A stretch of 20,923 nt of DNA, taken from NCBI GenBank assembly GCA_937958695.1, contig CALGNK010000046.1:1-20923 (forward strand), read 5' to 3'. A model generated the notes under the pieces. It worked only from the letters and a program-made list of their open reading frames with translations, ran no database searches and was not told where the DNA came from. A program made the translations under genes and the position numbers. Below, piece by piece: positions 1 to 20,772 of the stretch. The stretch comes from an uncultured bacterium (GTDB lineage Bacteria > DUMJ01). Position 1 is the first letter of the stretch. Every line of letters starts with the position of its first letter.

Positions 1-189
1 AAGTCCGATAGAGGTAAGGAAGAGCATAATAAGGGGAGATAGGTTTAAGTTTACAACTGAGCTATATAGATGAAAGGGGATGAGAATGTAGGAAAAGTTT
101 AGGAATATTAAAGTAAGATATAAATTTAGTCTAGATAACCCAAGAAGGGTAGTGTAATTATAAGGTAAGCAATAAAATACATAAAAATT

Positions 190-3287: not shown

Positions 3288-4685
3288 ATGAATGTCTTTG
3301 TTATTGTTACAGACAGTATGAGAAAGGATGCCTTAGGATGTTATGGAGGTAAAGCCAAAACTCCAAATATAGATAGCTTAGCAAAGGATGGGATAATTTT
3401 TACTAACGCTTATAGTGAGGGTTTACCTACTTTACCTACAAGAACAACTTGGTGGACAGGAAGGTATACTTTTCCTGTTCGTGGTTGGCAGCCCTTTGAA
3501 TCCTCAGATTTGCTTTTAGCTGAAGTCCTTTGGGATAAGGGTTATACGTCTTGTTTAGTTTCAGATACGTATCATATGCATAAACCAGTTTATAATTGTG
3601 GTAGGGGGTTTGATACAGTAATTTGGATAAGAGGCCAGGAATATGATCCTTGGATTATAGATGATATAAATGTAGATATATCTAAATATCACAGGTTAAG
3701 GGGAGACTCTTCCGATTTTTTATGGAAGCCTAGATTTGAACAGTATCTTAAGAATGTATCCTGGTATAAGAATGAGGAAGATTACTGTGTAGCTAGAGTG
3801 TTTAAGTCTGCAATAGAATGGTTACAAAGAATAAGTAAGGAATATAAAGATAGACTTTTCCTATGGATAGATGCATTTGATCCTCATGAACCTTGGGACC
3901 CTCCTGAACCATATAGAAGTATGTACAATCCTAATTATTCAGGGCAGGAATTGATAGATCCTGTTCCAGGCATAGTAGAAGGTTATATGACTGAGGAGGA
4001 ACTTCAGCATACTATAGCTTTATATCATGGAGAAGTTTCATTTGTAGATAGATGGGTAGGTGTATTTCTTGAAGAGCTGAAATCTCTGGATTTATACGAT
4101 GATTCTATAATAATATACACCTCTGATCACGGAGAACCATTTGGAGAGCATGGGATTATAAGAAAAGCAAGACCTTGGAATTATGAAGAGTTAGTTCATA
4201 TTCCTTTGGTTATAAAATATCCAGGTATTTCAGGTAGTAAAGTAGTAGAATCTATTGTACAAACCACCGATTTAATGCCAACTATATTAGATATGCTAGA
4301 TATAAACAAAGATTCCCTTACTCTAGACTTTCTAGCCCCAGCTTCTACCGGAACGTTTCCTCAAGATATGAGGCTTTACTCTAAGAAGGTCCTTTTAGAG
4401 GGTAACAGTATGTTGCCTCTTATAAAAGGAGATATAGAGAAGATAAGAGAATATGCATTTATAGGACATTATAAACAGTCTTGGACGATAAGAAATTTAG
4501 ATTATAGTTTTCACCTTTTTATAGACGGTTCTAAAAAACCAGAACTTTACAATTTAAAAACTGATCCTTGGGAAAAGAATAACATAATTGAAAAAGAGCC
4601 TCATATAGCAGAAGAACTAGAGAGAATACTAAAGAATTTTGCTGATGAGATTATACAGAAGAGGAGAAAAGAATATGAAACCTAA
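3288..4685 (+). CDS. Sulfatase-superfamily hydrolase with Thr in place of the formylglycine Cys
   Basis: Member of the sulfatase/alkaline phosphatase superfamily, 465 aa. Seen: metal ligand Asp9 followed by Ser10 at the end of strand 1; active-site segment T48-L-P50-T-R52 where sulfatases have C-x-P-x-R; D93-T-Y-H96 where canonical sulfatases have G-K-x-H; FDPHEPWDPP with His200; SDHGE with Asp280-His281; and Lys293. No signal peptide precedes strand 1, so the enzyme is cytoplasmic. Thr is not a known substrate of formylglycine-generating enzymes, so this is probably not an ordinary formylglycine sulfatase. Thr nucleophiles are known in related phosphodiesterases and phosphoethanolamine transferases, so phosphoester cleavage or transfer is possible. 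First of three hydrolases in the transporter operon; its last 11 bp overlap the next gene. Ribosome binding site AAAGGAGG at 3272-3279. Superfamily certain; reaction not known. Confidence 0.9.
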   Translation: MNVFVIVTDSMRKDALGCYGGKAKTPNIDSLAKDGIIFTNAYSEGLPTLPTRTTWWTGRYTFPVRGWQPFESSDLLLAEVLWDKGYTSCLVSDTYHMHKPVYNCGRGFDTVIWIRGQEYDPWIIDDINVDISKYHRLRGDSSDFLWKPRFEQYLKNVSWYKNEEDYCVARVFKSAIEWLQRISKEYKDRLFLWIDAFDPHEPWDPPEPYRSMYNPNYSGQELIDPVPGIVEGYMTEEELQHTIALYHGEVSFVDRWVGVFLEELKSLDLYDDSIIIYTSDHGEPFGEHGIIRKARPWNYEELVHIPLVIKYPGISGSKVVESIVQTTDLMPTILDMLDINKDSLTLDFLAPASTGTFPQDMRLYSKKVLLEGNSMLPLIKGDIEKIREYAFIGHYKQSWTIRNLDYSFHLFIDGSKKPELYNLKTDPWEKNNIIEKEPHIAEELERILKNFADEIIQKRRKEYET

Positions 4686-12062: not shown

Positions 12063-12195
12063 AAGATAGAGGTCTATATAAGGAGGTGAAGATAGGAAAG
12101 AATATTATTGAGATGGTCTTTAAGGTGTTTTAAACGGGGGAAAGTAGGGATGGGTTTAAATGTTTAAGTTTATAAAATTTAATAAGGAGGTTGAG
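12063..12195 (+). repeat. Leader repeat copy A (upstream of the first family-5 binding protein)
   Basis: Purine-rich noncoding leader of 133 bp, about 96% identical to copy B at 15626-15760. The longest exact block is 75 bp (12080-12154). Differences are two adjacent substitutions (12078-12079), one further substitution and two single-base indels. It ends in the working ribosome binding site AAGGAGGTTGAG. It also contains internal AAGGAGGTGA (12080-12089) and CGGGGGAAAG sites with only short, unconserved reading frames after them. No confident promoter or classical riboswitch fold was recognised; TTGAGA at 12108-12113 lacks a good -10 partner. Confidence 0.9.
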
Positions 12196-12200
12196 AGATT

Positions 12201-14147
12201 ATGAGATATTTAGTTGGTATATTTTCAGTAATAATTTGTATAAGTCTCGTCTTAGGAATTGTGCCATATAATTTTGGAGCAGAGTTGCCATCTCCTAAAC
12301 AGTATAGTACCGTTCAGGAATATGAAAAGGCTACTGGCAAGAGGATTTCTAGATTTAATGAAGCTCCTATGTTAGCTGAATTGGTAAAACAGGGTAAACT
12401 ACCTCCGGTAGAAAAGAGATTACCTGAGGAGCCAGCAGTTGTAGAACCTTTAGAAGAAGTTGGTCAATATGGTGGAAAAATGAGGATAGCTTTTACAGGT
12501 GCAGGAGAGGCGAGTGAAGTACTTATTCAAGGATTACTTACAGCTGAGATGTACCGACTTGGTAAACCTATACCAAATATAGTAAAAGATTTTAAGGCTT
12601 CTAAGGATCAGAGGTTCTTTACTTTCTATTTAAGAAAAGGGTTAAAGTGGTCTGATGGGGCTCCTTTTACTGTAGATGATATCCTTTTTTGGTATGAAGA
12701 TGTGATAAATAATAAAGAACTCACTCCTGTCTTTCCATTATGGTTAACATTTGGAGCAGATAGGATTCCTGCTAAATTTGATAAAATTGATGATTATACT
12801 CTTAGAATAACATTCGCTGGACCTAAGCCAGATTTTATCCAAAGAATGGCAACTACTGGTCAGAGAGAGATATTTTTACCAAAACATTATCTGAAACAGT
12901 TCCATCCTAAATATCAAGACTCTAAGAAGTTAGAAGCTATGGCAAAAGAGGCAAAATTTGACTTTTGGCATCAACTTTTTTGGGATAGAAATAGTTGGAC
13001 AACAAATCCAGAAAGGCCTGTTATGTTTCCTTGGAAGGTCAAAGTACCTTCACCTAATACTCCTGTTATACTAGAACGTAATCCATACTACTGGAAGGTC
13101 GATCCAGCTGGTAATCAACTTCCTTATATAGATAATATTGTTATAGACATAGTTTCTAATGCAGAATTAATAAACATAAAAGCGATGTCCGGAGATTTAG
13201 ATTTTCAAGCCAGACATCTTTTCTTGGCTAATTATCCGGCATTTATGGAGAATAGGAGTAAGGGGAACTATAGAGTATTAAGATGGACTAGACCTGCTAC
13301 TGCCGAACCTATGATTGCTCTTAATCAAAATACAAAGAATTCTAAGTTAAGACCTCTTTTCCAGGACAGAAGATTTCGTATAGCTCTATCCTTAGCCATA
13401 AATCGTGCTGAAATTAATCAAGTAGTTTATCTGGGATTAGGGACACCAGGACAGGCTTCTCTTTCCAAGAGAGATCCCTATTACAGTCCTGAGTGGGCTA
13501 AAGCATATGCTGAGTATAATCCAAAAGAAGCAAATAGGCTTTTAGATATATTAGGGCTTACAAAGAGAGATAAGGATGGATTTAGATTACTGCCTGATGG
13601 GAGTCCGCTAAATCTCACTATAGAGGTTGCTCCTATATTTGCAGACTGGGTTACGGTGTGCGAGATGGTTGCAAACTATTGGAGTAAGATAGGCATAAAA
13701 ACTGCTATAAAGGTTCTGCAAGATACTCTTTACTATACTCGTGCCCGAGCAGGGGAGCCAGATATAGTTGCCTTTCCATTTGACAATACAGCTGCATGGG
13801 GGATACTAGTATTTCCAGACCATGTAATAGGAACACATGGTGCAGTTCCATGGATTCCAGAATATGCTAGATGGTATCTTACAGGTGGCAAGGCTGGAGA
13901 AGAACCTCCTGGGGATATTAAGAGGATATATCAGTTATGGGATAGGGCAATCTCCAGTACTAGTGAAAAGGAAAGGGCTGCAGCTATAAAGGGAATCATT
14001 GATATCCATAAAAGAAATATATATTTAATTGGAACAGTGGGTGACTATCCATTGCTAGCTATAGCTAAGAATAATCTAAGGAATGTTCCGGAAGGAGTAG
14101 ATCAATGGCCCTGTTTAGGATTCCCTGAACAGTTTTTCTTTAAGTAA
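12201..14147 (+). CDS. ABC transporter substrate-binding protein, family 5 (oligopeptide/DppA-like), copy 1
   Basis: Large extracytoplasmic binding protein, 648 aa. Seen: signal peptide at about residues 1-27 without an obvious lipobox Cys; an N-terminal extension with RFNEAPMLAELVKQGKLPPV (51-70) and EEVGQYGG, typical of the long family-5 proteins; the family core LRKGLKWSDGAPFTVDDILFW; a later block with FRIALSLAINRAEINQ; and C-terminal KNNLRNVPEG. Family-5 proteins bind peptides but also oligosaccharides and other ligands, and the adjacent hydrolase suggests the latter. No permease or ATPase for it is in the window. The start is fixed by AAGGAGGTTGAG at 12184-12195. It is a paralogue of the protein starting at 15765 with the conserved block at the same residue numbers. 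Confidence 0.93.
   Translation: MRYLVGIFSVIICISLVLGIVPYNFGAELPSPKQYSTVQEYEKATGKRISRFNEAPMLAELVKQGKLPPVEKRLPEEPAVVEPLEEVGQYGGKMRIAFTGAGEASEVLIQGLLTAEMYRLGKPIPNIVKDFKASKDQRFFTFYLRKGLKWSDGAPFTVDDILFWYEDVINNKELTPVFPLWLTFGADRIPAKFDKIDDYTLRITFAGPKPDFIQRMATTGQREIFLPKHYLKQFHPKYQDSKKLEAMAKEAKFDFWHQLFWDRNSWTTNPERPVMFPWKVKVPSPNTPVILERNPYYWKVDPAGNQLPYIDNIVIDIVSNAELINIKAMSGDLDFQARHLFLANYPAFMENRSKGNYRVLRWTRPATAEPMIALNQNTKNSKLRPLFQDRRFRIALSLAINRAEINQVVYLGLGTPGQASLSKRDPYYSPEWAKAYAEYNPKEANRLLDILGLTKRDKDGFRLLPDGSPLNLTIEVAPIFADWVTVCEMVANYWSKIGIKTAIKVLQDTLYYTRARAGEPDIVAFPFDNTAAWGILVFPDHVIGTHGAVPWIPEYARWYLTGGKAGEEPPGDIKRIYQLWDRAISSTSEKERAAAIKGIIDIHKRNIYLIGTVGDYPLLAIAKNNLRNVPEGVDQWPCLGFPEQFFFK
12349..12409 (+). 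repeat. 61-bp near-identical patch shared with the second binding-protein gene
   Basis: Matches 15913-15973 at 60 of 61 positions, including synonymous sites, although flanking coding sequence has diverged. It encodes RFNEAPMLAELVKQGKLPPV. This looks like gene conversion or a selected duplicate segment. Confidence 0.85.
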
Positions 14148-14158
14148 TTATGCTAAGG

Positions 14159-14203
14159 ATGAGGCGGATAAGAGGTATCTAGGATGCTTCCTTTCCGCCT
14201 CAT
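14159..14203 (+). terminator. Intergenic hairpin between binding protein and hydrolase (attenuator or weak terminator)
   Basis: A perfect 10-bp stem, ATGAGGCGGA (14159-14168) with TCCGCCTCAT (14194-14203), encloses 25 nt and lies 11 bp after the binding-protein stop. Only TTT follows, so full termination is doubtful. It may stabilise the upstream message or reduce read-through into the hydrolase gene, whose ribosome binding site GGAGGT (14210-14215) follows at once. Confidence 0.6.
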
Positions 14204-14224
14204 TTAAACGGAGGTAAACATTTT

Positions 14225-15622
14225 ATGGTGAAAAATATAGTGCTTATAATCTGTGATACTCTTAGACAGGATTTTGTTAGTTACTATGGAGGTTTTGCCT
14301 ATACTCCAAATATAGATGCGCTAGCAAAAGATGGAATTACCTTTACCAATTTCCTCCCAGCAAGTTTTCCTACAGGGCCATTTCGTAAGGATTTGCTTAC
14401 AGGGAGATTTACTTTTACCTATCATGCTTGGAGAGGTAACTGGCAAGAGAGAGATTGTCTAATTACTGATGTTCTAAATACTGCTGGACTTATAACGACT
14501 CTTATCGGGGATACAATGACAGTTGGTACCTATGATTCTCACTTTCGATATGTAGATTTTATTAGAGGGCAAGGTCCTGTTTCTCTTTATCCGGTAGAAA
14601 TTGAACTGCCCCTTCCGGCAGATGAAAACAAACTTCGTACCCCTAGAGAAAGACTTCAGATTTTGATGGAGCAGTGGGTAAGATGGAGGGGAGAGGAGGA
14701 TAGGTTTGCTCCTCAAGTATTTAAAAGGGCCCATCAATGGCTTGAAAATTTTGGGAGAAAAGCCAAGAGATTTTTTCTTATGATAGATTCTTTTGATCCA
14801 CATGAGCCATGGAATCCTCCTAGATATTATATAGAAAGATATGACCTTAACTATGAAGGTGAAGAGTTATTTGAACCCGCCTATGCTCCGAGTAATTATG
14901 CCTCTGAAAGAGAGATTAAACATATGAAGGCAATGTATGCAGGGGAAATAACAATGGTAGACAGATGGGTTGGTTACTTGTTAGAAGGGCTTAAGTATAT
15001 GGATTTATGGGATGATACTGTAGTAATTTTTACTTCAGACCACGGTTTTTATCATGGGGAACATGGGTTTATAGGTAAGGTCGAATTAGATAGAAATGGA
15101 ACAATTATAAAGAGATGGCCTCTCTATGATACAATAACTAGGGTACCATTAATAATTAGAATCCCAGGTGGACCTAAGGGTAAAATATATGATACTCTTT
15201 GCCAAACTCCAGATTTAACAGCTACTATTTGTGATTTAGCTGGTATTAATATACCGAATACCTGTCAAGGATTTTCTCTACTTCCGTTAATAAATAATGA
15301 AAAAGAAAGTATTAGAGATCTTACAGTTACAAGTCATACCTATGTGACTGATAAAGAATGCCGTTGTCCAACCTCTATACGTACTAAAGAATGGCTATAT
15401 ATTTATGGTGGGGATGAGTGGAAACATGAGCTTTATAATTTGTTGAATGATCCCTTTCAGGATGATGATATCTTTGTAACAAATCAGGATATAGCTAAAG
15501 AATTTCATAGAAGATATATTGATTGGCTAAGAAAAGTGGAATGTCCAGAGGTAAGTGTTAATTTGAGATCTGAGTTTAATAATAAAGCTAAGGAGGATCT
15601 GCCATATGCGAAGGTAATTTAA
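14225..15622 (+). CDS. Sulfatase-superfamily hydrolase, Thr-type, most divergent copy
   Basis: Cytoplasmic sulfatase-superfamily hydrolase, 465 aa, no signal peptide. Seen: Asp11-Thr12 after strand 1; T50-G-P-F-R54 in place of C-x-P-x-R; FDPHEPWNPP with His193; SDHGFYHGEHG with Asp272-His273; Lys285. Where canonical sulfatases have GKxH it has G-D-T-M-T (95-99), so both the Lys and the His are gone, while the other Thr-type proteins here keep the His. It pairs with the binding protein upstream, separated by a hairpin, and with GGAGGT 9 nt before the ATG. GTG 14228 is an alternative start two residues shorter at most. Superfamily certain; a sulfatase reaction is doubtful because no formylglycine can be made by known routes. 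Confidence 0.9.
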   Translation: MVKNIVLIICDTLRQDFVSYYGGFAYTPNIDALAKDGITFTNFLPASFPTGPFRKDLLTGRFTFTYHAWRGNWQERDCLITDVLNTAGLITTLIGDTMTVGTYDSHFRYVDFIRGQGPVSLYPVEIELPLPADENKLRTPRERLQILMEQWVRWRGEEDRFAPQVFKRAHQWLENFGRKAKRFFLMIDSFDPHEPWNPPRYYIERYDLNYEGEELFEPAYAPSNYASEREIKHMKAMYAGEITMVDRWVGYLLEGLKYMDLWDDTVVIFTSDHGFYHGEHGFIGKVELDRNGTIIKRWPLYDTITRVPLIIRIPGGPKGKIYDTLCQTPDLTATICDLAGINIPNTCQGFSLLPLINNEKESIRDLTVTSHTYVTDKECRCPTSIRTKEWLYIYGGDEWKHELYNLLNDPFQDDDIFVTNQDIAKEFHRRYIDWLRKVECPEVSVNLRSEFNNKAKEDLPYAKVI

Positions 15623-15625
15623 AAA

Positions 15626-15760
15626 AAGATAGAGGTCTATGCAAGGAGGTGAAGATAGGAAAGAATATTATTGAGATGGTCTTTAAGGTGTTTTAAACGG
15701 GGGAAAGTAGGGATGGGGTTTAAATGTTTAAGTTTATAAAATTTGATAAAGGAGGTTGAG
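15626..15760 (+). repeat. Leader repeat copy B (upstream of the second family-5 binding protein)
   Basis: Noncoding leader of 135 bp, about 96% identical to copy A (12063-12195), starting 4 bp after the stop of the upstream hydrolase. The exact 75-bp block is 15643-15717. It differs at GC 15641-15642, by an extra G in the run ending 15718, by G15745, and by one extra A before the ribosome binding site. Its preservation next to diverged genes suggests function or recent conversion. Confidence 0.9.
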
Positions 15761-15764
15761 TAAA

Positions 15765-17756
15765 ATGAGATTAGTGAAGTTGTTAGTTTTATGTGTAATT
15801 GGTGTTAGCTTAGTTTTAGGTTCGAATTCTTTTGCTCTTACTAAAGAGATTAGCTATCCAAAACAATACAATACTCCAGCTGATTATCAGAAAATTACTG
15901 GCAAGAGAATAACTAGATTTAATGAAGCTCCTATGCTAGCTGAATTGGTAAAACAGGGTAAACTACCTCCGGTTACTAAGAGACTACCTAGCGAACCTTT
16001 AGTTATAGAACCTACAGAGGAGATAGGGCAGTACGGAGGAACAGTAAGAATCATCCATACAAATCCGCAGAACTTTGAGGATGGGGTAAATATAGTTGGT
16101 AAAGAATCTATATTGACCTTTGACCCTAAAGATGGAGCAACCATCTTACCTAATCTGGCTAAATCTTGGATATTCTCTAAGGATGGTAAAACACTTATAT
16201 TAGAATTGAGAAAGGGTATAAAGTGGTCAGATGGTCAACCTTTTACTGCAGATGATATAGAGTTCTGGTGGAAGGATGTAATATTAAATGATGAGCTTAC
16301 ACCTGTAAAACCTAAGGTATGGGCACCTAGTGGAAAGTTGATGAAGTTAGAAAAGTTAGGACAGTATACTGTGAGGCTTCAGTTTGCAATTTCTTACCCT
16401 GCAGCACTAATACAGATGGCTGCTTGGGCTACTGAAAATAATTTTTATCTACCAAAGCATTATTTGAAACAATTCCATATCAAATATAATCCGCAGGCTA
16501 ATGAGCTGGCTAAGAAAGAAGGATTTGCTTCTTGGATACAGCTGTTTCAATCGAAATCTGCTTTAGGCTATTTTGATGGTATACAGAATCCTGATGCTCC
16601 AGTAATAAGAGCCTATAAGATAGTAAGTAGAACACCTGAAGTGACAATCTTAGAGAGAAACCCATACTATTGGAAGATAGACACAGCAGGCAATCAACTT
16701 CCTTATATTGATAGGATTAGATTGACCTTAGTTACAAATGTTGAAGTATATACAGCAAAAGTGGTAGGTGGAGAAGTAGATCTAGCCCAGTGGAATACTA
16801 CTCTAGATAACTATACTCTTTACAAGGAGAATGAGAAAAAAGGAGATTATAGAGTGATTAACTATCAAACTGCTTGGCCCTCTATGGTAGAGATATTCTT
16901 AAACCTGAACCATAAAGACCCAGTAATGCGTAAGATATTTAGTGACCTTAGATTCAGGAAAGCCCTTTCTCTGGCGATAAATAGAGACGAGATAAATCAG
17001 ATGGTCTTTCATGGTATGGCTGAGCCACTGCAGACAGTGATACTCCCGAGAGGAGGTAGATTCTGGGATGAGAGATTGGCAAAGTTATATACAGAGTATG
17101 ATCCGAAGGAAGCCAACAGACTTTTAGATGAGATGGGGCTAGATAAAAGAGATAAGGATGGTTTTAGATTAAGACCAGATGGTAAACCTCTTCAGATAAC
17201 TATTGATTTTTGGCCAGGTGAAGGTGGACCAGCAAAGATCTCTATAGTTGAATTGGTTCAAAATTACTGGAGTAAGGTTGGAGTAAAAACTACTTCTAGA
17301 CAGCTTGAGAGGAGCTTGCTTCAGGTTAGGCGTCAGGCAGGAGACATCGATGCTACTATTTGGCATACAGGTCAGTGTTCAGATCCACTATGGATTTTGA
17401 ATCCATGGCATTTTGTTCCTAATTCCTGGGAGTTTTCTACTGGGCCTCAATGGGCTTTGTGGTATACATCTTGGGGAAAATCAGGAGAAGAACCTCCTGA
17501 AGAGGTAAAGAGGGCACTAAAACTTTGGGAGACTGTGCAGACATCGCTAGATGAAAGGAAACAGATAGAGGCTGGAAAAGAGATGTTAAGACTTTTTGTA
17601 GAGAATCTCTGGGGTATTGGTACAGTAGGACTCCAGCCTTGGCCAGTAATAGCCAAGAATAATCTAAGGAATGTCCCCGAAGGTGGACTGTTAGCTTGGG
17701 ATTGGGTCTACCTAGCTAGGTATAGGCCAGAACAGTTCTTCTTAAAGCAAAAGTAG
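15765..17756 (+). CDS. ABC transporter substrate-binding protein, family 5 (oligopeptide/DppA-like), copy 2
   Basis: Large extracytoplasmic binding protein, 663 aa from ATG 15765. Seen: signal peptide at about 1-24 (MRLVKLLVLCVIGVSLVLG, then NSFA), no lipobox; RFNEAPMLAELVKQGKLPPV at residues 51-70, exactly the same numbers as in copy 1; core LRKGIKWSDGQPFTADDIEFWW; FRKALSLAINRDEINQ; C-terminal KNNLRNVPEG. I reject the in-frame TTG at 15756 because it overlaps the ribosome binding site AAGGAGGTTGAG (15749-15760). Clearly a paralogue of copy 1, conserved mainly at the N-terminus and core blocks, diverged elsewhere, so its ligand may differ. It is followed by a strong hairpin and a Thr-type hydrolase, repeating the module order. 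No permease is nearby. Confidence 0.93.
   Translation: MRLVKLLVLCVIGVSLVLGSNSFALTKEISYPKQYNTPADYQKITGKRITRFNEAPMLAELVKQGKLPPVTKRLPSEPLVIEPTEEIGQYGGTVRIIHTNPQNFEDGVNIVGKESILTFDPKDGATILPNLAKSWIFSKDGKTLILELRKGIKWSDGQPFTADDIEFWWKDVILNDELTPVKPKVWAPSGKLMKLEKLGQYTVRLQFAISYPAALIQMAAWATENNFYLPKHYLKQFHIKYNPQANELAKKEGFASWIQLFQSKSALGYFDGIQNPDAPVIRAYKIVSRTPEVTILERNPYYWKIDTAGNQLPYIDRIRLTLVTNVEVYTAKVVGGEVDLAQWNTTLDNYTLYKENEKKGDYRVINYQTAWPSMVEIFLNLNHKDPVMRKIFSDLRFRKALSLAINRDEINQMVFHGMAEPLQTVILPRGGRFWDERLAKLYTEYDPKEANRLLDEMGLDKRDKDGFRLRPDGKPLQITIDFWPGEGGPAKISIVELVQNYWSKVGVKTTSRQLERSLLQVRRQAGDIDATIWHTGQCSDPLWILNPWHFVPNSWEFSTGPQWALWYTSWGKSGEEPPEEVKRALKLWETVQTSLDERKQIEAGKEMLRLFVENLWGIGTVGLQPWPVIAKNNLRNVPEGGLLAWDWVYLARYRPEQFFLKQK
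15913..15973 (+). repeat. 61-bp patch near-identical to the first binding-protein gene
   Basis: Partner of 12349-12409; the single mismatch is a silent T/C change in a Leu codon. It is a nucleotide-level match inside two otherwise diverged paralogues. Confidence 0.85.
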
Positions 17757-17841: not shown

Positions 17842-19272
17842 ATGAACGTCATTTTAATAGTTTCTGATACATTTAGAAGAGATTTCTTGAGTTGTTATGG
17901 GAATGACTGGATTCATACTGAAAATATAGATAGATTTGCAAAATCCGCTATTATCTTTGATAATGCTTATACAGCATCATTTCCAACGGTCCCGAATAGA
18001 CTAGATCTATTTACAGGAAAGTTTACTTTTACCTATAGAGATTGGGCACCACTACCTCAGAATGAAGTGGTACTAGCCGAAGTCTTAAATAAAGCAGGAT
18101 ATACAACTATGCTGATAGCAGATACTCCTCATATATTAAAGGATGGATATAACTTCCAAAGAGGATTCTATGGTTGGGAATGGATAAGAGGACAAGAGAA
18201 TGATAGGTATAATACAGATCCTATAGATATAAAGTTTCCTTGCGATCCTAAAAAACTAAGGAACCCTTATGATGCGGTAGCCCACTATCTAAGAAATACT
18301 TCTTGGAGGAGATATGAATCTGATTACTTTGTAGCTCAGACTATGGAAACAGCTATAAGATGGTTAGAGAGAAATTATAGAAGTGAGAGATTCTTTTTAT
18401 ATGTAGACACATTTGATCCTCATGAGCCTTGGGATCCTCCTAAATGGTATGTAGATATGTATGATCCTGGATATGAAGGAGAAGAGGTCATATATCCAAG
18501 GTATGGTCCAGCAGATTATCTATCTAAAGAAGAATTGAAGCATATGCGAGCCCTATATGCTGGGGAAGTAACACTGGTTGATAGGTGGGTTGGAAGACTA
18601 CTTTCTAAAATAGAAGACCTGGGTTTATTTGATAATACAGCAATAATATTTACTACTGACCATGGATTCTATCATGGTGAGCATAACCTTACGGGTAAAA
18701 GCATCATCCTAGAGGAGAAAAATTATCATGGGCTAGCTCCGCTTTATGAAGAGGTGGCTCATATACCACTAATAGTTAAGATGCCAAATGCTAAAGGTGG
18801 ATGGAGATGTAGTGCTTTTGTTCAGCCTCCAGATATTATGCCAACCATCTTAGAGATCTTAAATGTGGAAGATCCGGGAACTACTCATGGGAAGAGTTTC
18901 TTCCCTATTATTAGAGGCGAGACAAAGTCTATAAGAGATTTTGCTGTTACATCTCCTGCTATAATATATGGTCCTGTTGCAGGACAAAGGATTACGGTAA
19001 CTACAAATGAGTGGAGACTTATATATGCTGGAAATCCTGAAGCTGTTAAAGAACCCTCTTTTACAAGTATAGTTGATGGCATCCAGAGAGAACAATATCC
19101 GCTAGGAGAAGTCAAGTCTGAGCTTTATTACATAAAGGATGACCAAAGAGAAAGAGTAAATCTTATAGATGAAAGAAGAGATATTGCTGTAGAGATCCAT
19201 AGAAAACTTTTTGAATTTCTTAAGTCTATCGGTACTCAAGAGAAATATCTAAGATTCTGGGATAAAATATAA
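17842..19272 (+). CDS. Sulfatase-superfamily hydrolase, Thr-type
   Basis: Cytoplasmic sulfatase-superfamily hydrolase, 476 aa, no signal peptide. Seen: Asp9-Thr10 after strand 1; T49-V-P-N-R53 replacing C-x-P-x-R; A-D94-T-P-H97 replacing GKxH, so His kept and Lys lost; FDPHEPWDPP with His194; TDHGFYHGEH with Asp273-His274; Lys286; the group-specific WEWIRGQENDR (112-122). Its closest relative here is the hydrolase at 14225, with which it shares SFPT before the active site and DHGFYHGEH. It completes the second leader/binding protein/hairpin/hydrolase module. The ribosome binding site AAGGAGGTTGA (17828-17838) is the same sequence that precedes the binding-protein genes. The reaction is uncertain: formylglycine is excluded by known maturases, phosphoester chemistry with Thr is possible. 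Confidence 0.9.
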   Translation: MNVILIVSDTFRRDFLSCYGNDWIHTENIDRFAKSAIIFDNAYTASFPTVPNRLDLFTGKFTFTYRDWAPLPQNEVVLAEVLNKAGYTTMLIADTPHILKDGYNFQRGFYGWEWIRGQENDRYNTDPIDIKFPCDPKKLRNPYDAVAHYLRNTSWRRYESDYFVAQTMETAIRWLERNYRSERFFLYVDTFDPHEPWDPPKWYVDMYDPGYEGEEVIYPRYGPADYLSKEELKHMRALYAGEVTLVDRWVGRLLSKIEDLGLFDNTAIIFTTDHGFYHGEHNLTGKSIILEEKNYHGLAPLYEEVAHIPLIVKMPNAKGGWRCSAFVQPPDIMPTILEILNVEDPGTTHGKSFFPIIRGETKSIRDFAVTSPAIIYGPVAGQRITVTTNEWRLIYAGNPEAVKEPSFTSIVDGIQREQYPLGEVKSELYYIKDDQRERVNLIDERRDIAVEIHRKLFEFLKSIGTQEKYLRFWDKI

Positions 19273-19398: not shown

Positions 19399-20772
19399 AT
19401 GAATATTATCTTTATAATGCTTGATAGTTTTAGACAGGATCATATTAGCTTGTATAATGAGGGAAAGCCTGTATTTGATGGTGTTCCTCCCTGTAAAACT
19501 CCAAATTTAGATAAATTCGCTAAAGATAGTATCGTGTTCTATAATGTATATCCAGAAGGATTACCGACCATCCCAGTTAGGACAGAATTGATGACTGGTC
19601 AACAGACATTACCTTATAGACCCTGGCAACCTCTAACTAAAGAAGATGTGACAATTGCAGAGATCCTTAAGGAAGAGGGGTATATCTGTGGTTTAATATC
19701 TGATACTTATCACTATAGAGCTCCGGGTATGAATTTCCATAGGGGGTTTCACTCTTATAGATGGATAAGGGGACAGGAATATGACCCATATACATCCTGG
19801 AAATCCAAACGAAATGCTGATGATTACATAAATGAGAATTATACTCCAGAGTGGAGAGCTAGAGTAGAGCAATATCTTAGTAATTCCGACGATATGGAAG
19901 ATGAGGATAATAGATTCCCTGCTCTAGTAGTTTCACAGGCTATAGAGTGGTTAAAGAAGAGCAGAGAGCATAAAAAAATCTTTCTATGGGTAGATTCTTT
20001 TGATCCCCACGAACCATGGGATCCTCCAAAGAGGTTTGATAAGTATACAGACCCAAACTATAAGGGACCTAGATTAATATTGCCAATGGGAGGGAGAGCA
20101 AGCGACTGGGCAACCCCAGAAGAGATAAGGTATATTCAGGGTTTATACGCTGGAGAGGCGGAATTTGTAGACTATTGTTTAGGTGCCCTATTTGAAACAT
20201 TAGAGAATTTGGGCTATTATGAAGATTCTCTTATAATCATAACCGCTGATCATGGACATCCTCTCTGTGACCATGGCAAGTTTTTGAAGGGTGCAGATAG
20301 AATGTATAATGAGTTACTTAAGGTACCATTTATCGTAAGATTTCCAAAAGGTGAGTTTGCTGGGATGAAAGTTTATTCCCTTATTCAATTTCAAGATGTC
20401 CTTCCTACTATACTGGATATAGTAGGACTAAAAAATAATACTTCTAGTATGCATGGAAGAAGTTTCCTACCAGTGATAAAAGGAGATAGGGATAATCATC
20501 GTGACGCAGTAATTATTGGTTATTATGAAGGGATAGATAGATGTGTAAGGGATTTACACTGGAGTTATATCCAGAGGCCTGAGGAAGAGCCAGATGAACT
20601 TTACAATTTAGATGAAGACCCCAAGGAAAAGAATAACCTTATAGATAGATATCCAGAAGAAGCACTTAGACTTTCTTCCATGTTTGGCTCCTACTTTAGA
20701 AATAGAAGAGCTAAGAGAGTTGTAAAGGGTATACAGGGTAAGTACGAAATAAGTTCTGGCAGTGTAGAATAA
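19399..20772 (+). CDS. Sulfatase-superfamily hydrolase, Thr-type
   Basis: Cytoplasmic sulfatase-superfamily hydrolase, 457 aa, no signal peptide. Seen: Asp9-Ser10 after strand 1; T57-I-P-V-R61 replacing C-x-P-x-R; S-D102-T-Y-H105 replacing GKxH; WIRGQEYDP (122-130); FDPHEPWDPP with His204; ADHGHPLCDHG with Asp284-His285; Lys294 and Lys297 as candidates for the usual Lys. It is most like the 3288 protein (both have EGLPT before the active site, SDTYH and RGQEYDPW/Y), so the Thr group here splits into two subgroups. An insertion at residues 21-33 separates strand 1 from the TPNLD motif. Ribosome binding site AAAGGGG at 19383-19389. It follows the sulfatase stump and precedes an acetyltransferase by 18 bp. 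Reaction unknown. Confidence 0.9.
   Translation: MNIIFIMLDSFRQDHISLYNEGKPVFDGVPPCKTPNLDKFAKDSIVFYNVYPEGLPTIPVRTELMTGQQTLPYRPWQPLTKEDVTIAEILKEEGYICGLISDTYHYRAPGMNFHRGFHSYRWIRGQEYDPYTSWKSKRNADDYINENYTPEWRARVEQYLSNSDDMEDEDNRFPALVVSQAIEWLKKSREHKKIFLWVDSFDPHEPWDPPKRFDKYTDPNYKGPRLILPMGGRASDWATPEEIRYIQGLYAGEAEFVDYCLGALFETLENLGYYEDSLIIITADHGHPLCDHGKFLKGADRMYNELLKVPFIVRFPKGEFAGMKVYSLIQFQDVLPTILDIVGLKNNTSSMHGRSFLPVIKGDRDNHRDAVIIGYYEGIDRCVRDLHWSYIQRPEEEPDELYNLDEDPKEKNNLIDRYPEEALRLSSMFGSYFRNRRAKRVVKGIQGKYEISSGSVE

What the first reader, a model, noticed from the sequence alone, without database searches (positions are those of the whole stretch)
12063..15760. Duplicated 134-bp leader conserved more strongly than the genes it precedes
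Leaders at 12063-12195 and 15626-15760 are about 96% identical with a 75-bp exact block, while the binding proteins downstream are diverged paralogues. Noncoding DNA more conserved than coding DNA implies either a functional RNA/DNA element under selection (regulatory leader, binding site, translation enhancer) or recent conversion. It is purine-rich, has no conserved reading frame, and holds two internal SD-like sites besides the real one.
Basis: partly seen in the sequence, partly recalled or inferred. Interest (0 to 1): 0.7.

Follow-up and report, generated by a model that had tools for sequence, protein, structure and literature searches.

The report
Leader copied between neighbouring transporter genes
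Two distantly related nutrient-binding genes carry nearly the same 134-base lead-in, most likely because recombination recently copied the DNA from one to the other, as seems to happen repeatedly within this bacterium's large transporter-gene family.

Summary
In detail: 12063-12195 and 15626-15760 are 96% identical with a 75-bp exact block, before solute-binding proteins (SBPs) only 44-46% identical. Selection on a conserved leader RNA is poorly supported. There are no other copies in the genome, in two sister species, in 56 other bacteria, or as an exact 21-mer in genome and viral collections. Neither copy folds better than shuffles, and Rfam finds nothing. SBP2's orthologue in sister species G002 (88-89% identical over the 213 residues available) has an unrelated leader, although most orthologues keep theirs.

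A second homogenised tract lies inside the coding region (codons 44-68). There SBP1 and SBP2 share 69/75 bases against 59/75 between SBP2 and its own orthologue, mostly at silent sites: the signature of gene conversion after speciation. Leader sharing between diverged SBP paralogues recurs: 16 of 1529 same-genome pairs, including another G000 pair where the tract runs from a LacI-type gene into the SBP. A few G002 cases may reflect mobile-element remnants.

In passing I found a possibly new element, GTCWAGTNA plus a covarying hairpin. It precedes SBP genes of several families in all three species, including window 126-155, but not this leader pair.

The parts
12063..12195 (+). leader copy 1, between the IclR-family gene and SBP1; homogenised tract
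   Evidence: 96.3% identical to 15626-15760, exact run 12080-12154; only two copies in the genome
15626..15760 (+). leader copy 2, starting 4 nt after the upstream sulfatase-family stop codon; homogenised tract before SBP2
   Evidence: the SBP2 orthologue in G002 has an unrelated leader
12201..14147 (+). SBP1, family 5 solute-binding protein (PF00496), 648 aa
   Evidence: Pfam E 3.7e-66; no close orthologue in the two sister species (best 58%)
15765..17756 (+). SBP2, family 5 solute-binding protein (PF00496), 663 aa
   Evidence: Pfam E 6.5e-65; orthologues in G001 (94% over residues 229-663) and G002 (88-89% over residues 1-213), both cut by contig ends
12330..12404 (+). SBP1 codons 44-68 (TGKRI..RFNEAPMLAELVKQGKLP), second homogenised tract
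   Evidence: 69/75 nt identical to SBP2 against 59/75 for SBP2 and its orthologue; permutation 0/20000; motif nucleotide identity rank 3 of 1562 same-genome pairs
15894..15968 (+). SBP2 codons 44-68, partner of the second homogenised tract
14225..15622 (+). sulfatase-family (PF00884) gene between SBP1 and leader copy 2
   Evidence: no close orthologue in G001 or G002 (best 44%)

Best explanation
The shared leader is the product of recent homologous recombination (gene conversion) between two tandem but anciently diverged SBP genes about 3.6 kb apart. DNA of one copy replaced the leader of the other, from just behind the upstream gene to the ribosome-binding site, and a second tract of about 75-94 bp was copied in the conserved coding block at codons 44-68. 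The signal-peptide region between the tracts stayed diverged. The likely outcome is that both genes share promoter and translation signals; that consequence is inferred. Shown: both tracts, their youth relative to the proteins, the incongruence with SBP2's orthologue, and recurrence of leader sharing among SBP paralogues. Inferred: conversion rather than another exchange, the timing after speciation, and any benefit. The direction is undetermined, with a weak lean towards SBP1 as donor.
For: Two separate tracts, one coding: leader 96%, codons 44-68 92% in DNA, while the signal peptide (54%) and body (53%) are at paralogue background. In the coding tract SBP1-SBP2 beats SBP2-orthologue 69 to 59 of 75 (permutation 0/20000), mostly at silent sites. 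Motif codon identity is 94%, against a mean of 51% for pairs with motifs at least 90% identical in protein. SBP2's G002 orthologue (88% aa over its first 213 residues) has no leader similarity beyond the ribosome-binding site, whereas 29 of 43 orthologue-like pairs keep a recognisable leader, 65-86% identical. Leader sharing by diverged paralogues recurs: 16 of 1529 same-genome pairs at E<1e-10 with bodies 25-61% identical. In L114/L123 the tract is 96% over 487 bp from a LacI-type gene end through the leader to SBP codon 50, then 47% aa. L059/L076 repeats the pattern of leader plus motif without signal peptide.
Against: The leader tract ends almost exactly at gene boundaries, which recombination need not respect and selection would. 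The 130-bp gap between the tracts needs two events or patchy repair. The N-terminal part of the G001 SBP2 orthologue and its leader are missing because the contig ends, so only one outgroup is available. Some recurrence cases in G002 (L018/L030/L137, L067/L079) may come from mobile-element remnants, which I did not confirm.
Confidence: 0.76

Rival explanations
1. Purifying selection on a functional leader (RNA, operator or translation enhancer) holds the two copies at 96% while the proteins diverge.
For: The tract coincides with the intergenic region and ends at the ribosome-binding site. Both copies have a perfect internal AAGGAGG site.
Against: It cannot explain silent-site identity in codons 44-68. 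The leader is absent from the SBP2 orthologue in G002 and from all other searches. Folding z-scores are +0.89 and +0.35 and Rfam has no match. The 75-bp exact run shows no pattern of spared and free sites.
Confidence: 0.12
2. The 134-bp direct repeats are scars of insertion or duplication: an SBP1-sulfatase cassette entered before SBP2 by crossover within a shared leader, which both ends now carry.
For: SBP1 and the sulfatase-family gene at 14225 have no close orthologue in G001 or G002. The repeats flank exactly that pair of genes. G002 has another gene pair before SBP2.
Against: It does not account for the homogenised coding tract inside SBP1 and SBP2, nor for leader sharing by non-adjacent paralogues on other contigs. 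The pre-insertion site cannot be seen because the G001 contig stops inside SBP2.
Confidence: 0.09
3. The repeat is an assembly artefact of a draft metagenome bin.
For: The window is a whole 20.9-kb contig of a 57-contig draft; the sister genomes break inside SBP2.
Against: The copies differ at five places and have different flanks. The coding tract shows independent homogenisation.
Confidence: 0.03

Closest known systems
Intragenomic gene conversion of tandem paralogues, e.g. mtrA-1/mtrA-2 of methanogens (PMC4632066)
   Same: One domain of two old paralogues is homogenised while another part stays distinct, so paralogues resemble each other more than their orthologues there.
   Different: Here the main homogenised piece is the noncoding leader, the coding tract is short (about 75-94 bp), and only one species shows this pair.
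Switched intergenic regions / horizontal regulatory transfer (described in the Piggy paper, PMC5890482)
   Same: A gene keeps its identity while its upstream region is replaced by a non-homologous one (SBP2 in G000 against G002).
   Different: Those cases compare strains and leave the origin open; here the other copy is a neighbouring paralogue in the same genome.
Cis-regulatory leader RNAs (riboswitches and similar) in Rfam
   Same: A conserved stretch between gene and ribosome-binding site.
   Different: No Rfam match, no fold above shuffles, no conservation between species.

Membership tests
Gene conversion between paralogues | A tract where paralogues are more alike than orthologues, including silent sites | tested here: met
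   Codons 44-68: 69/75 against 59/75, permutation 0/20000
Gene conversion between paralogues | Sharp identity drop outside the tract | tested here: met
   Signal peptide 54% and body 53% nt
Gene conversion between paralogues | Non-reciprocal transfer with known donor | tested here: inconclusive
   12 informative sites: 7 with SBP1's relative, 2 with the orthologue, 3 other; states are close to family consensus
Switched intergenic region | Orthologous genes with non-homologous upstream regions | tested here: met
   SBP2 against G002 orthologue, leader E 3.2
Structured leader RNA / riboswitch | Stable or covarying secondary structure | tested here: not met
   z +0.89 and +0.35; covariation not testable with two copies
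Structured leader RNA / riboswitch | Match to a described family | tested here: not met
   Rfam: none at gathering score; best at relaxed threshold E 4.8
Mobile element or MITE | More copies elsewhere and terminal inverted repeats | tested here: not met
   Two copies only; no inverted repeats of 30 bp or more in the window; shorter ones not tested

The most novel reading that the evidence does not exclude
In this poorly known bacterial lineage the roughly 38-44 family 5 SBP genes per genome repeatedly exchange upstream leaders (with or without signal peptides) by recombination anchored in the leader and the conserved codon 44-68 block. Binding specificity and expression control would then be reshuffled independently.
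Probability: 0.3. Interest if true: 0.5.

Novelty: new member of a known kind. Interest (0 to 1): 0.33.

Why it matters
It explains the puzzle (noncoding DNA more conserved than coding) without a functional RNA, and supplies a test, silent-site homogenisation against an orthologue, for similar cases. If leader exchange among SBP paralogues is general, it is a simple way to rewire uptake genes. The comparison also exposed a separate candidate RNA element before SBP genes that deserves its own study.

Tried and rejected
Functional RNA leader: folding, Rfam and genome searches all negative. Recent duplication of the whole module: rejected because SBP and sulfatase-family proteins are only 38-46% identical and SBP1 is closer to other paralogues. 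Repeated mobile element: only two copies. Purine richness and internal ribosome-binding sites as special features: ordinary among 97 leaders. A shared leader family across species: the window leaders do not align convincingly with the L045/L044-type leaders beyond the ribosome-binding site. Relatives by profile in genome contigs gave only other paralogues of the same genus and distant SBPs.

Full report
Observation. The two leaders exist as described: 12063-12195 and 15626-15760, 96.3% identical over 135 columns (two adjacent substitutions at 12078-12079, one further A-to-G change, and two 1-bp insertions), with an exact 75-bp run at 12080-12154. Only these two copies occur in the 2.09-Mb genome G000. 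The window is the complete contig C46. Leader 1 lies between an IclR-family gene and SBP1; leader 2 starts 4 nt after a sulfatase-family gene and precedes SBP2. SBP1 and SBP2 belong to PF00496 and are 44-46% identical.

Genomic setting. The held phylum contains three genomes of one genus. Public contigs of the same lengths in the genome collection belong to unclassified bacterial MAGs: MAG-58, matching G002, and SKW194, matching G001. Each genome carries about 38-44 SBP_bac_5 matches. SBP2 has orthologues in G001 (94% over residues 229-663) and G002 (88-89% over residues 1-213), both truncated by contig ends. SBP1 and the sulfatase-family gene at 14225 have no close orthologue there (58% and 44% at best). 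The modules are therefore not recent duplicates of one another.

Is the leader conserved by selection? It is not found in G001 or G002, nor in 56 other bacterial genomes, and a 21-mer from the exact block has no exact match in genome contigs or viral contigs (the own genome may be left out there). The SBP2 orthologue in G002 sits behind a different sulfatase-family gene, and its leader shows no similarity beyond the ribosome-binding site. As a yardstick, 29 of 43 cross-species SBP pairs with bodies at least 75% identical keep a detectable leader, typically 65-86% identical. Neither leader folds better than shuffles (z +0.89, +0.35), and Rfam gives nothing. Purine content and internal GGAGG sites are ordinary.

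Evidence for recombination. Identity along the module is mosaic: leader 96%, signal peptide 54%, codons 44-68 92%, body 53%. In the coding tract SBP1 and SBP2 share 69 of 75 bases, SBP2 and its orthologue only 59, SBP1 and that orthologue 61; no permutation of codon columns in 20,000 reached this. Elsewhere SBP2 is far closer to its orthologue. In the 17-residue motif 16 codons are identical, and the pair ranks 3 of 1562 same-genome pairs by nucleotide identity; the other top pairs include L059/L076 and L114/L123, which also share leaders. Selection on a leader cannot homogenise silent sites 130 bp into the gene, but gene conversion can.

Recurrence. Among 100 SBP N-termini with upstream DNA, 16 of 1529 same-genome pairs share a leader at E<1e-10 with bodies only 25-61% identical. 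In G000, L114/L123 share 487 bp at 96%, from the end of a LacI-type gene (recognised by eye) to SBP codon 50, and then diverge to 47% aa. In G002, L044/L059 share leader and signal peptide, and L059/L076 share leader and motif but not signal peptide, the same mosaic as in the window. Two G002 groups (L018/L030/L137 and L067/L079) share long upstream tracts that may be mobile-element remnants; this was not confirmed.

Mechanism. Most likely, RecA-type recombination between the tandem genes copied the leader and, separately, the conserved block. Direction is uncertain: at 12 sites where SBP1 and SBP2 agree against the orthologue, SBP1's closest relative has their state at 7, the orthologue's at 2 and another at 3, a weak lean to SBP1 as donor. 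The 75-bp exact direct repeats also predict occasional loss of the 3.6-kb SBP1-sulfatase segment (inference). Shared expression control is inferred, not shown.

A separate element. Aligning the leaders revealed GTCNAGTNA, with 21 exact copies in 100 leaders against 1.35 expected, nearly always 58-90 nt before the start codon and followed at once by a hairpin of variable sequence. Over 38 instances the mean folding energy of the following stretch is -4.4 against -1.6 kcal/mol for shuffles, P = 6e-10. A 24-sequence alignment made with the model has 94.6% of cells paired, and its covariation score exceeds all 500 shuffles (the alignment was fitted to the model, so it leans that way). A model trained only on family 5 leaders finds further copies before family 1/8 SBPs, including window 126-155 before the SBP gene at 190. 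No convincing match occurs in 56 other bacterial genomes, and 19 loci, most of them carrying it, have no credible Rfam match. The leader pair of this finding lacks it.

Verdict. Observation confirmed. The best explanation is recent intragenomic gene conversion, a known process, with an unusual emphasis on the leader.

Noticed in passing
window 126-155 (+); also L178-L197, L199-L202, L205 and SBP leaders in G000, G001, G002: Candidate new 5'-UTR RNA element: GTCWAGTNA followed immediately by a covarying 4-9 bp hairpin, usually 58-90 nt before start codons of solute-binding-protein genes of families 1/8 and 5, in all three species of the genus and not convincingly in 56 other bacteria; no credible Rfam match.
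   Followed up: partly
window 3288-4685, 14225-15622, 17842-19272, 19399-20772: Four of six sulfatase-family (PF00884-like) proteins have Thr at the formylglycine position (T-x-P-x-R) where 4639 and 6005 have the usual Cys (C-x-P-[SA]-R); they may use a Thr nucleophile and not be sulfatases (by motif only).
   Followed up: no
L114 and L123 (G000 contigs C51 and C3): 487-bp tract at 96% identity from the end of a LacI-type regulator gene through the leader into SBP codon 50, with bodies 47% identical: a chimeric pair.
   Followed up: partly
L079 (G002:C181) and L067 (G002:C174): L079 has two stacked leaders: a 283-bp tract 98.6% identical to the L067 leader, then an L044-type leader and signal peptide; the upstream DNA may be a mobile-element remnant.
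   Followed up: no
G000, G001, G002 whole genomes: About 38-44 family 5 SBP matches in genomes of 2.1-2.4 Mb, a very large paralogue expansion in an unclassified lineage.
   Followed up: no
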